Shown here in pieces: positions 24,245 to 27,180 of a DNA stretch of 64,000 nt. Every line of letters begins with the position of its first letter. Position 1 is the stretch's first letter. The translations under genes were made by a program, and so were the position numbers. Below the pieces are notes generated by a model, which saw nothing but the letters and a program-made list of their open reading frames with translations, ran no database searches and had not been told where the DNA came from. Source of the stretch: Pseudonocardia sp. TRM90224 (GTDB lineage Bacteria; Actinomycetota; Actinomycetes; Mycobacteriales; Pseudonocardiaceae); NCBI RefSeq assembly GCF_021245725.1, contig NZ_JAJGSX010000006.1:248001-312000 (forward strand), given 5' to 3'.

Positions 24245-24360
24245 GTGCGCCACGGTACGCGCCACCCGTTCGGCCCATCCCGATTTGACAACCAGGCGTG
24301 ACCACCGCTCACCCGTCTCGTTGATCCGACCAGAGCGTGCCTTCACCCGGGGGGATGACG

Positions 24361-25128
24361 ATGGTCTCAGCTGTTCCGTCGGCGCGACCGGCGCAACAGG
24401 CCGACGTCGAGCGGGTCGCCCCATCGGGGGCGAAAGTGCGGCTGGCTGTTCCGTCGGAGCTCGGCACCCATTCGTGGTACGCGAACACCCGGTTCAGCGG
24501 GCCGCGGCTGTCGCGCCAGTTCTTCTTCGCGCCGCTCGGCGAGCACCAGGCCATCCCGAAGCACCTGCTGCCCGGCGCCCGCGAGTACCGCCAGCAGATG
24601 CGCGGCTACGACGCGATCGTCTTCGAGGCCGTCGACCGGTCCGACTCGGCGCTCGTGCTCGCCGGTCCGCACCACGAAGCGACGACGTGGTTCGCGGGGC
24701 CCGCGCCCGATCCGGCCGGCCTCGACGCGCTGCTCGCGACGTTCCGCTTCACCGACTCGCTGAAGGGTGCAACGCTCGCGCCGGTGTCGAACCTGCTGGT
24801 CAAGCAGACCGACGTGTCGCTGATCGGCAAGAGCGCCGTCTCGATGCTCGTCGTCAAGAAGGCGACGGACGTCTTCGGTGTGCTGCCGGACTGGGCCGGT
24901 CTCGTCCTGCCCGACGGTGAGCTGTGGCGCGCCACCCGCGTGCTGGGCGCGGCCGCTGCGGCAGCCGTGAAGGGCACGCCGCACGAGTGGCGCTACCTCA
25001 TCGCGAACGCCTCGACCGTGATGGACGTCGTGCTGCTCGGCCCCGAGTCGGGGCGCCCGCGCTCCGCGCTGGCCGACTCGCAGGTCGTCGAGGCGCTCTC
25101 CGGCCTCGTCGGCCGCTGGGTGGTCTGA
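24361..25128 (+). CDS. Hypothetical protein, first gene of the CxxC/Tat locus
   Basis: The 255-residue protein has no recognised domain, no clear signal peptide and no cysteine. It has a mixed alpha/beta look with tryptophan-containing segments (HSWYANTRF, ATTWFAGPAP, PDWAGLVLPDGELW). The ATG at 24361 was preferred over an ATG two codons earlier because the GGGGGG run at 24349-24354 is then correctly spaced. The next gene begins three bases after its stop, so it opens an operon of five or six tightly spaced genes. A role together with the downstream redox proteins is inferred only from position. Confidence 0.7.
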   Translation: MVSAVPSARPAQQADVERVAPSGAKVRLAVPSELGTHSWYANTRFSGPRLSRQFFFAPLGEHQAIPKHLLPGAREYRQQMRGYDAIVFEAVDRSDSALVLAGPHHEATTWFAGPAPDPAGLDALLATFRFTDSLKGATLAPVSNLLVKQTDVSLIGKSAVSMLVVKKATDVFGVLPDWAGLVLPDGELWRATRVLGAAAAAAVKGTPHEWRYLIANASTVMDVVLLGPESGRPRSALADSQVVEALSGLVGRWVV

Positions 25129-25131
25129 GCG

Positions 25132-25617
25132 GTGTCGCTCGCGCTCGCCGTTGCACTGCTCGCACTGCTGGTGGCGCTGTTCGCGCTGGTGGCGCTGGTC
25201 GCCGTCTACGCACGGGTGAAGGCGCTCGAAGCCGGACGGGCCGCTGACCTCTCCGGGTACGCGTCACTGGTGGGCCGTCTCGCGCCGCTGTCGGTGCGGC
25301 CCGGTACCGGCCAGCGCGCCGGCGTCGTCGCGGTGCTCGACGCCGACTGCGCGCTCTGCCACGCCGTCTGGGCGGCGCTCGCGACCGCACCGGACGTGCG
25401 GGCCGTCGCGGTGCTGGACCGGCCGGCCGCGCTGGGGGACGGGCCCGCGGAGCTGCTCGTCGACCTCGACACCCGCATCGCGCTCTTCGAGGGCTACGCG
25501 CCCACCCTGCTCGGGCTCGACGCCGCGGGCGTCGTCACCCAGCGGGTGTTCGTCTACGCCGACACCGACCTCGCCGCCACGATCTCCCGCCTGACCGGAG
25601 CAGAGGTGACCACATGA
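25132..25617 (+). CDS. Membrane-anchored thioredoxin-like protein (MauD-like)
   Basis: The 161-residue protein has one N-terminal membrane helix (residues 3-26), a short linker and a thioredoxin-like domain. That domain carries a CALC active site (Cys73 and Cys76, in VVAVLDADCALCHAVWAAL). A cis-proline-like APTLLGLDAAGVV segment follows near residue 125. MauD, the disulfide-handling factor for methylamine dehydrogenase small subunit, has the same design, but similarity here is general and not proof. Its stop overlaps the start of the next gene (ATGA), so it is translated together with the Tat-exported cysteine protein, its likely substrate. Confidence 0.75.
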   Translation: MSLALAVALLALLVALFALVALVAVYARVKALEAGRAADLSGYASLVGRLAPLSVRPGTGQRAGVVAVLDADCALCHAVWAALATAPDVRAVAVLDRPAALGDGPAELLVDLDTRIALFEGYAPTLLGLDAAGVVTQRVFVYADTDLAATISRLTGAEVTT

Positions 25618-26135
25618 TCAGCCTCGACGACATCCCGACCGCGTTCGAGCCGCCCGCCGACGCGCGTCCGAGCGGGGTCGTAGCCATGATCCGTTCGATC
25701 CGGCCGAGCCGTCGGGCGGTGCTGCGCGGGCTGGTCGTCGGTGCGGCGGCCGCCGCGCTCGTGCCGATCGACTGGTACCTCACCCGAAGGGCTGCCGCCG
25801 CGGCGCCCGGTCCCAGCGACGAGTACCTGACCTGCCCCAAGGACTATGACGAGGAAGCGACCAACTGGCCGCGCGGCGGCCCGGCCGTGTGCGCGGGCGG
25901 CTGGCGGCGCGGCACCTTCCCCTGCTCGGGCGGCTACCACATCGAGGGCAGCCACTACGAGGAAGGCGCCGGCTACGAGTCGATGCGGGTGACCACCGAC
26001 TGCCACGGCCGCAACGCGTGGCGCTGGAAGGGCTACCGCTGCTCCGACGCCGTCACCAACGCCGCGTTCACCGACGGGCTGGAGTACCACGGAGTGACGA
26101 TCGCGATCTGCTCGTTGCCGAGCGGCGCGGAGTAG
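25614..26135 (+). CDS. Tat-exported six-cysteine protein
   Basis: The 173-residue protein has a twin-arginine signal: SRRAVLRG with Arg33-Arg34, then a hydrophobic stretch at 39-50 and an alanine-rich region ending near 64. The mature part of about 108 residues contains exactly six cysteines (74, 93, 104, 130, 143, 166) and several tryptophans (85, 97, 136, 138). Even cysteine number and export by Tat suggest three disulfides formed before or at export. The layout recalls the methylamine dehydrogenase small subunit (MauA), which is also Tat-exported and disulfide-rich, but it has fewer cysteines and I cannot assign it. A start at the internal ATG (codon 25) would leave a more standard Tat signal. 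Confidence 0.72.
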   Translation: MISLDDIPTAFEPPADARPSGVVAMIRSIRPSRRAVLRGLVVGAAAAALVPIDWYLTRRAAAAAPGPSDEYLTCPKDYDEEATNWPRGGPAVCAGGWRRGTFPCSGGYHIEGSHYEEGAGYESMRVTTDCHGRNAWRWKGYRCSDAVTNAAFTDGLEYHGVTIAICSLPSGAE

Positions 26136-26143
26136 ATCGAGGG

Positions 26144-26290
26144 ATGCGGCAGCTCGGGCGCGCGACGCTGCACCCGCTCGTCCCCGTTGCCGTGCTCGCG
26201 CTGGCGCTGCTGCCGGCCTGGACGTCCACGGCGCTGCTCGCTGCCGTCGCGGGCGCGGCCGCCGGGTACGCCAACTCCGGCAGCACTTGA
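26144..26290 (+). CDS. 48-aa hydrophobic ORF ending in UGA, in frame with the next gene
   Basis: Forty-eight codons (MRQLGRATLHPLVPVAVLALALLPAWTST...) encode a hydrophobic helix pair and stop at TGA 26288-26290. The start lies eight bases after the previous stop. The next 33 codons after the TGA have no ATG, GTG or TTG, yet keep G/C-rich third positions. They run without further stop into the membrane protein at 26390. This piece may therefore be the N-terminus of one 237-codon gene interrupted by UGA, through selenocysteine, a nonsense mutation or a base error. If it is independent, it is a small membrane peptide. Confidence 0.5.
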   Translation: MRQLGRATLHPLVPVAVLALALLPAWTSTALLAAVAGAAAGYANSGST

Positions 26291-26317
26291 AGCCACAACT
26301 CGGCGTTCCTGCTGAGC
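26288..26317 (+). other. In-frame UGA followed by a stem-loop (candidate Sec codon/SECIS)
   Basis: Directly after the UGA, the RNA can fold CUCGGC (26299-26304), a six-base loop GUUCCU (26305-26310), then GCUGAG (26311-26316): six pairs including one G-U. A hairpin shortly after UGA with G and U as the first loop bases is the general form of bacterial SECIS elements, though the spacing of eight bases to the stem is on the short side. The context is redox-related. This is suggestive only. Confidence 0.3.
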
Positions 26318-26389
26318 GCGTCGGTCTGGCGCGCACGTCCCGTACTCCGCTTCTTCGGCGCAGGACTGCTGCTGGGGGCGGAGCTGGTT

Positions 26390-26857
26390 GTGTTCGCCGC
26401 GGCGGCGTTGGGTGCGTTGCCGCAGCTGCTCGTCCCCGCACCCGTGCGCTGGGCGGTGTTCGGGGCGGCTGCGCTGGCCGTGCTGCTGCGGGAGACGGGG
26501 GTGGCGCGGTTCCCCGTGCCGGAGAACGCCCGGCTCGTCACCGAGGACGTGCAGCACCTGCGCGAATGGGGTGCGCTGCAGTTCGGGTTCGAGATGGGCA
26601 CCGGCATGCGCACGTACTCGCCGTCGGCGCTGCCGCACCTCGCCCTGCTGGCGGTCCTGCTGGTCGTGCCGTTCCCCGCGGCGTTCGCGCTGGGCGCCGG
26701 GTTCGCGGTGGGCCGGCTGGTGATGCCGCTGATGTCGAACGCGTGGAGCGACGACGGCTCGTGGACCGAGCTCTGGGCGCGGTGGGACGCGGTGGCGCGC
26801 CCGTTGCTCGCACTGGTCGCGGTGGCCGCGTTCGGGCTTGGCATGCTGCCCGCATGA
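26390..26857 (+). CDS. Polytopic membrane protein of the CxxC/Tat locus (conservative gene model)
   Basis: From GTG 26390 the frame encodes 155 residues with about four membrane segments (near 1-18, 20-35, 82-108, 140-155) and a polar section VPENARLVTEDVQHLREWGALQFGFEMGTGMRTY. The GTG start would fall inside a hydrophobic helix that clearly begins about ten codons upstream (FFGAGLLLGAELVVFAAAAL). The true N-terminus is therefore probably further upstream, at a rare CTG or across the UGA at 26288. Its stop overlaps the next gene (ATGA). A role with the two thioredoxin-like proteins, for example transmembrane electron transfer, is inference. Confidence 0.6.
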   Translation: MFAAAALGALPQLLVPAPVRWAVFGAAALAVLLRETGVARFPVPENARLVTEDVQHLREWGALQFGFEMGTGMRTYSPSALPHLALLAVLLVVPFPAAFALGAGFAVGRLVMPLMSNAWSDDGSWTELWARWDAVARPLLALVAVAAFGLGMLPA

Positions 26858-27180
26858 GGTGGACCGAGGTGATCGTGATCTACGACGTCGGGTGCCCGTC
26901 GTGCTCGCGGATCGCGCGCGAGCTGCCCGAGCTGGTGAAGGTGCCGGTGACCGTCCGGTCGTGCCGCGATCCGCAGCTGGCCGCATACCCGGGGCTGAGC
27001 GCCGCGGTGCGGGCCTGCACGACGCCCGCGCTGGGAATGGTGCGTGCACGAGGAACGGTCCGCTGGTGGCTCGGGCTCAGCGGCGCGGTCGGGGTGCTGC
27101 CGGTCGTGCGCCCGCGGGCGCTGAAGGAAGCGGTCGGTCTGGTCTGGGCGGCGTTCCGGACCGCGCGCATGCACCAGTAG
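26854..27180 (+). CDS. Soluble thioredoxin-like protein with CPSC site
   Basis: The 108-residue protein opens VIVIYDVGCPSCSRIARELPEL, a beta-strand followed by a C-P-S-C redox centre (Cys14, Cys17) at the start of a helix, as in glutaredoxin-like or DCC-type proteins. Two more cysteines (in VRSCRDP and VRACTTPALG) are present. The second sits just before a threonine-proline pair in the cis-proline position. No signal peptide is seen, so it probably acts on the cytoplasmic side. It is the last gene of the locus, coupled by ATGA to the membrane protein. Confidence 0.72.
   Translation: MRWTEVIVIYDVGCPSCSRIARELPELVKVPVTVRSCRDPQLAAYPGLSAAVRACTTPALGMVRARGTVRWWLGLSGAVGVLPVVRPRALKEAVGLVWAAFRTARMHQ

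What the first reader, a model, noticed from the sequence alone, without database searches (positions are those of the whole stretch)
26144..26857. Membrane gene read through an in-frame UGA: candidate selenoprotein or recent nonsense mutation
Codons 1-48 (26144-26287) and the membrane protein continuing from 26291 are in the same frame. The 33 codons between the UGA and the first usable GTG have G/C-rich third positions like real coding, and the hydrophobic helix starts before that GTG. A hairpin with a GU-starting loop follows the UGA. The gene sits among CxxC thioredoxin-like partners, a setting where a selenocysteine would make chemical sense.
Basis: partly seen in the sequence, partly recalled or inferred. 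Interest (0 to 1): 0.72.

Follow-up and report, generated by a model that had tools for sequence, protein, structure and literature searches.

The report
New membrane selenoprotein family in actinobacteria
A gene that looks broken by a stop codon is very probably read through with selenocysteine: relatives in other actinobacteria keep the same stop codon beside thiol-redox genes, and they match no family in the libraries searched.

Summary
The in-frame UGA at 26288-26290 is not a nonsense mutation. It is kept in 78 of the 80 homologous loci fetched (97 relatives found). A hairpin with apical loop GGUCU follows 32 nt downstream; its stem covaries with a synonymous Arg codon position. The own genome has selA, selB, selD and tRNA-Sec on one contig, and a UGA-containing formate dehydrogenase gene with the same GGUCU loop. 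tRNA-Sec is over threshold in 48 of 49 genomes tested; the exception is a species whose copy lost the UGA. A distant branch shows Sec/Cys pairs, [WF][SG]P(U/C)GxSM; in the class sample its UGA copies lie in 8 SelA-positive genomes and its Cys copies in 2 SelA-negative ones. Pfam and NCBIfam have no family for it, and a 2026 review table of 119 families lists none like it. It is the fourth gene of a mau-like operon. Best mechanism: a DsbD/CcdA-related membrane selenol serving a Tat-exported six-Cys protein (about 50%). There is no protein-level proof.

The parts
26144..26857 (+). Selenoprotein gene (237 aa with Sec49 by UGA), membrane protein distantly related to DsbD/CcdA
   Evidence: UGA kept in 78 of 80 fetched loci; AlphaFold model all helical, mean pLDDT 93.5
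26288..26290 (+). UGA codon read as selenocysteine
   Evidence: aligned TGA in 78 of 80 loci; TGC in 7 of 44 branch-B stretches examined
26316..26334 (+). SECIS-like hairpin, 7-bp stem here, apical loop GGUCU at 26323-26327, 32 nt after the UGA
   Evidence: same loop as the organism's own fdhA
26300..26315 (+).
24337..25128 (+). Operon gene 1: conserved protein of unknown family (cluster 0); start codon uncertain
   Evidence: in 68 of 80 loci plus the window by crude gene calling and clustering; no Pfam family
25132..25617 (+). Operon gene 2: thioredoxin-like protein with invariant CxxC and an N-terminal hydrophobic stretch (seen by eye)
   Evidence: only weak Pfam thioredoxin-type hits in a few members
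25614..26135 (+). Operon gene 3: twin-arginine (Tat-like) exported protein with six invariant Cys and two invariant Trp (NAWRW here)
   Evidence: alignment of 36 members; TAT_signal in 11 of 36 at E<=1
26854..27180 (+). Operon gene 5: small CxxC protein; its start overlaps the stop of the selenoprotein gene
   Evidence: tblastn hit in 30 of 80 loci

Best explanation
Window 26144-26857 is one gene whose UGA codon 49 is decoded as selenocysteine by the organism's own SelA/SelB/SelD/tRNA-Sec system, directed by the hairpin at 26316-26334 (supported by comparative evidence, not by protein data). The product belongs to a family of small membrane proteins that I find described nowhere I could look, distantly related to the DsbD/CcdA transmembrane thiol carriers; one Sec (or, in the distant branch, Cys) near the start is kept and no second Cys is conserved. 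Inferred mechanism: Sec49 forms a transient selenenylsulphide with the CxxC thioredoxin-like protein (25132-25617) and passes electrons at or across the membrane to form or repair the disulphides of the exported six-Cys protein (25614-26135), much as MauD and MauE serve the methylamine dehydrogenase light chain (recalled). The confidence given is for selenocysteine decoding; I give the redox-relay role about 0.5.
For: UGA at the aligned codon in 78 of 80 fetched loci and in all 17 branch-A matches with E<=1e-56, in 14 of 394 class genomes (checked). SelA at E<=1e-70 in 14 of 14 of these against 121 of 394 overall (my count from the listing; hypergeometric 4e-8). tRNA-Sec over the gathering score (62.7 bits or more) in 48 of 49 genomes. 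Loop GGUCU in 67 of 78; Ala GCG with Arg CGC in 34 of 34, Ser TCG with CGA or CGG in 43 of 44, a synonymous site that follows the stem; odds ratios 9 for CGA and 51 for GTC/GTT over the rest of the same genes. selD or selB within about 4 kb in 19 of 80 loci by clustering (identity confirmed for 3 of 13 selD and 2 of 6 selB). Sec/Cys pairs in branch B. One branch-B member scores DsbD_2 over cut-off; profiles of the two branches match with probability 98.4. MauE hits in 17 of 17 scanned members (of 25) of cluster 3.
Against: No protein or selenium data. Folding energy after the UGA is hardly lower than that of synonymous shuffles (mean z -0.32; z below -1 in 17 of 79), and a loose SECIS rule is met by 54% of shuffles as against 78 of 79 real. 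The hairpin is in the minimum-energy fold of 66 of 79. Two-sided covariation is nearly all at one base pair, and the outermost pair is unpaired in 26 of 41. SelB is over the NCBIfam cut-off in only 9 of the 14 branch-A genomes. Sequences are related, so counts are not independent. Branch A itself is narrow: in a 178-genome phylum sample only the own genome has it. For the role: no second conserved Cys, so the two-Cys CcdA mechanism does not apply; the window protein hits no Pfam family; the fold match to CcdA is weak (Foldseek E 0.22).
Confidence: 0.95

Rival explanations
1. Recent nonsense mutation or sequencing error; the real gene starts at a later GTG (26390) or is a pseudogene.
For: In this genome alone an ORF of 155 aa starts at 26390.
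Against: The same TGA stands in 78 of 80 loci from other genomes with conserved protein on both sides.
Confidence: 0.01
2. Programmed UGA read-through with a standard amino acid (for example Trp), or a switch making short and long forms, without selenium.
For: UGA read-through by near-cognate tRNA exists in bacteria (recalled, no call).
Against: Tie to SelA and tRNA-Sec, Cys and not Trp in distant homologues, selD/selB/selA neighbours, the same GGUCU loop in the own fdhA.
Confidence: 0.03
3. A selenoprotein, but not a redox relay for the exported protein: Sec49 acts in carrying or sensing a small molecule, or binds a metal or haem.
For: Only one conserved Cys/Sec; a conserved motif QFGFEMGTGxRTY of unknown use; the PDB fold matches are weak and mostly transporters.
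Against: Branch B keeps MauE-like and CxxC thioredoxin-like neighbours in all 10 class genomes that have it, as expected for disulphide chemistry; DsbD_2 relationship.
Confidence: 0.35

Closest known systems
DsbD / CcdA transmembrane thiol carriers (Pfam DsbD_2 PF13386, DsbD_TM PF02683)
   Same: One branch-B member scores DsbD_2 over its cut-off (1 of 3 given); CcdA 5vkv is the first but weak Foldseek match of the window model; the Sec/Cys lies in an S-P (branch B) or S-G-S-x (branch A) turn near the N-terminus.
   Different: Only one conserved Cys/Sec; the second Cys of CcdA (recalled) has no counterpart; the window protein itself hits no Pfam family.
Methylamine utilisation cluster mauE-mauD-mauA
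   Same: A MauE family protein in 25 of 80 loci (17 of 17 scanned members hit), a thioredoxin-like CxxC protein and a Tat-type exported Cys-rich small protein lie together.
   Different: No detectable similarity of the exported protein to the methylamine dehydrogenase light chain in Pfam or PDB sequences; no mauB recognised; an added selenoprotein; the window itself has no MauE gene in the cluster.
Selenoproteins TsoB (rhodanese/DsbD fusion-like), TsoY and the YeeE/YedE type (Table 1 of PMC13188914)
   Same: TsoB is described as DsbD-like and YeeE/YedE as a transporter family.
   Different: TsoB is hit by 2 of 76 members, best E 0.019; the Sec motifs listed there (UxxxxU, UxxV, GUxSG) differ; no TsoY hit was reported.

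Membership tests
Selenoproteins | In-frame UGA conserved at one site in a protein family | tested here: met
   78 of 80 fetched loci
Selenoproteins | Bacterial SECIS hairpin: 3-9 nt apical loop with G in its first two positions, 16-37 nt after the UGA (rule as in PMC13188914, section 5) | tested here: met
   loop GGUCU 32 nt after the UGA in 67 of 78, the other 11 with G second; in the minimum-energy fold of 66 of 79; stem covariation. The energy limit of the rule was not applied to the single hairpin
Selenoproteins | Sec machinery in the same genome | tested here: met
   own genome SelA, SelB, SelD, tRNA-Sec; relatives
Selenoproteins | Cys-containing homologues at the Sec site | tested here: met
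   distant branch B only: of 44 stretches examined 33 have TGA, 7 TGC, 4 gave no motif; none seen in branch A
Selenoproteins | Selenium present in the protein | not testable with these tools
   needs 75Se labelling or mass spectrometry
DsbD/CcdA family | Sequence match to the family model | tested here: inconclusive
   window protein none; branch-B L106 26.2 bits against cut-off 24.9, the other two given did not hit it
DsbD/CcdA family | One redox Cys in each half (recalled definition) | tested here: not met
   one invariant Cys/Sec column in 76 branch-A rows (all chosen for TGA) and in 13 rows of both branches
DsbD/CcdA family | CcdA fold | tested here: inconclusive
   Foldseek rank 1 but E 0.22, prob 0.57; not among the 50 rows shown by VIA-align
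Methylamine dehydrogenase light chain (operon gene 3) | Match to the light chain in Pfam or PDB sequences | tested here: not met
   AlphaFold model too poor to judge the fold (pLDDT 63.7)

The most novel reading that the evidence does not exclude
A selenium-dependent, membrane-based maturation pathway in actinobacteria, in which a one-Sec DsbD-like protein with MauE- and MauD-like partners builds an unrecognised exported redox protein, possibly with a tryptophan-derived cofactor made from the invariant Trp pair of NAWRW.
Probability: 0.2. Interest if true: 0.88.

Novelty: new variant of a known kind. Interest (0 to 1): 0.76.

Why it matters
UGA-bearing members of the two branches occur in 22 of 394 sampled class genomes (14 branch A, 8 branch B), and branch B in 33 of 178 sampled phylum genomes, 28 of them with a TGA. 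Pfam, NCBIfam and the 2026 inventory I read have no such family. I expect, but did not check in annotated records, that these genes are annotated as fragments or missed. No Cys form of branch A was seen, and the authors of deep-Sep say that selenoproteins without Cys homologues may be filtered out (PMC12013277, passage). If true it adds a membrane thiol-redox role to selenium use in these bacteria, testable in cultivable strains.

Full report
Observation. Window 26144-26857 reads in one frame through TGA at 26288-26290. The window lies in a genome of 9.38 Mb in 113 contigs; its closest relatives among the fetched loci are Pseudonocardia.

Conservation. A scan of genome contigs found 97 relatives, of which the best 80 were kept (L011-L090). 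In 78 of the 80 the codon aligned with the window's UGA is TGA, in the motif SGSx-U-[ST]xNSA. These 78 come from 24 named genera, among them Pseudonocardia, Amycolatopsis, Nonomuraea, Micromonospora, Actinoplanes, Streptomyces and Pimelobacter, and from MAGs including one named Acidimicrobiales (titles). Exceptions: L043 (Pseudonocardia thermophila) has an open frame in which the U position is lost; L045 aligns only in C-terminal parts, and the motif was found in no frame. In both, operon genes 1-3 were not detected in the fetched stretch. In the 76 proteins aligned (all chosen for TGA) no other Cys column is invariant.

SECIS. Two hairpins follow the UGA. The second, positions 29-47 counted from the T of TGA (window 26316-26334), has loop GGUCU in 67 of 78 sequences (AGGUU 5, AGUUU 3, AGGCU 1, CGUGU 1, CGUGC 1; L064, with a shifted register, was left out). 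It lies 32 nt from the UGA, inside the 16-37 nt of the bacterial model (PMC13188914 section 5), and is in the minimum-energy fold of 66 of 79. In a 41-row alignment the helix pairs in 90.2% of cells against 83.1% in shuffles and 31-50% when slid; 24 cells change on both sides, 22 of them at one pair; the outermost pair is unpaired in 26 of 41. The covarying pair joins the first base of an Ala/Ser codon to the third base of an Arg codon: GCG goes with CGC in 34 of 34, TCG with CGA (25), CGG (18) or CGU (1). CGA is rare elsewhere in these genes (47 of 953 Arg codons; enrichment P 2e-12), and Val at the loop is GTC/GTT in 70 of 72, while GTG is commonest elsewhere (P 3e-24; the sequences are not independent). 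Against this, folding energy is not unusual (mean z -0.32). The own fdhA gene has an in-frame TGA followed by a hairpin with the same GGUCU loop.

Machinery. The own genome has SelA (TIGR00474, 399.6 bits), SelB (TIGR00475, 270.6 bits, cut-off 242.25), SelD (387.6 bits) and tRNA-Sec (79.1 bits; ARAGORN anticodon tca), all on contig C22 between about 105 and 120 kb. Of 394 sampled class genomes 14 carry branch-A genes with TGA, 17 matches in all (the TGA site checked). All 14 have SelA at E<=1e-70, against 121 of 394 (my count; the tool counts 141 over the Pfam cut-off, weak matches included). SelB is over its cut-off in 9 of these 14 and in 76 of 394. Of the 80 named loci I gave 50, lying in 49 genomes: 48 have tRNA-Sec at 62.7 bits or more (gathering score 47); the one without, best 45.7 bits, is that of L043. 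This model also passes its threshold in 5 of 14 control genomes. In 5 of the 14 class genomes SelA lies on the same contig within about 7 kb of the gene (G183, G285, G307, G369, G043), and in L150 and L152 selA, selB and selD lie beside the operon. Gene clustering puts selD in 13 and selB in 6 of the 80 loci (3 and 2 confirmed).

Wider family. Remote hits led to a second branch (alignment A7) with WSP(U/C)GxSML. Branches A and B match with hhalign probability 98.4, E 6e-15, over 152 columns downstream of the Sec; in a joint alignment of 13 the Sec/Cys columns coincide. In the 394 class genomes branch B has TGA in 8, all 8 SelA-positive, and TGC in G109 and G013, both without a SelA match. In the phylum sample 33 of 178 genomes have branch B, with TGA in 28 of 34 matches; branch A was found there only in the own genome. 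Of 44 branch-B stretches examined, 33 have TGA and 7 TGC in the motif, and 4 gave no motif match; a hairpin with a GGU or GGG loop about 34 nt on is seen in many of the TGA ones, not in all. SelA was not searched outside the class. One branch-B member scores DsbD_2 over its cut-off.

Operon. Order in the window: unknown protein 24337-25128; thioredoxin-like CxxC protein 25132-25617; Tat-type exported protein 25614-26135 with six invariant Cys and two invariant Trp; selenoprotein; small CxxC protein 26854-27180. By clustering, a MauE-family protein lies nearby in 25 of 80 loci, 3 of them on the other strand; 17 of 17 scanned members hit PF07291 at E<=1. The window has none. In all 10 class genomes with branch B, Sec and Cys alike, MauE-like and thioredoxin-like neighbours are present, in the Cys ones on the opposite strand; operon genes 1 and 3 were not detected in the stretches read. 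I infer that the basic unit is MauE + thioredoxin-like protein + one-chalcogen DsbD-like protein.

Structure. AlphaFold2 gives a confident helical model (pLDDT 93.5, pTM 0.91). Foldseek against PDB has CcdA first but weak (E 0.22); VIA-align rows are generic. I call it DsbD/CcdA-related, not a member, because no second Cys is conserved.

Novelty. The window protein has no Pfam or NCBIfam family; other branch-A members have no hit better than E 0.006; nine branch-B members given to NCBIfam had none at E<=0.1. Table 1 of PMC13188914 (119 families) has no matching entry. One relevant paper could not be read, so a prior mention cannot be excluded.

Supported by comparison: conservation of the UGA, constraint on the hairpin, coupling to Sec machinery, Sec/Cys exchange. 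Inferred: selenocysteine in the product, the redox relay, the client protein.

Noticed in passing
L043 3700-4700: Pseudonocardia thermophila, without tRNA-Sec over threshold, keeps an open but divergent copy that lost the Sec position; operon genes 1-3 were not detected in the stretch: a natural loss case.
   Followed up: partly
L140 (own genome C34:39279-40193): Own formate dehydrogenase alpha gene with in-frame TGA and a SECIS-like hairpin with loop GGUCU.
   Followed up: yes
window 25614-26135: Exported protein family with six invariant Cys and NAWRW, no known family; possibly a new redox protein.
   Followed up: partly
window 24337-25128: Conserved first gene of the operon without any known family.
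   Followed up: partly
L150: selA, selB and selD directly beside two sets of the operon genes on opposite strands.
   Followed up: no
L179 301-1245: Branch-B selenoprotein with a C-terminal extension of about 80 residues; likeness to MauE was tested and not supported.
   Followed up: partly
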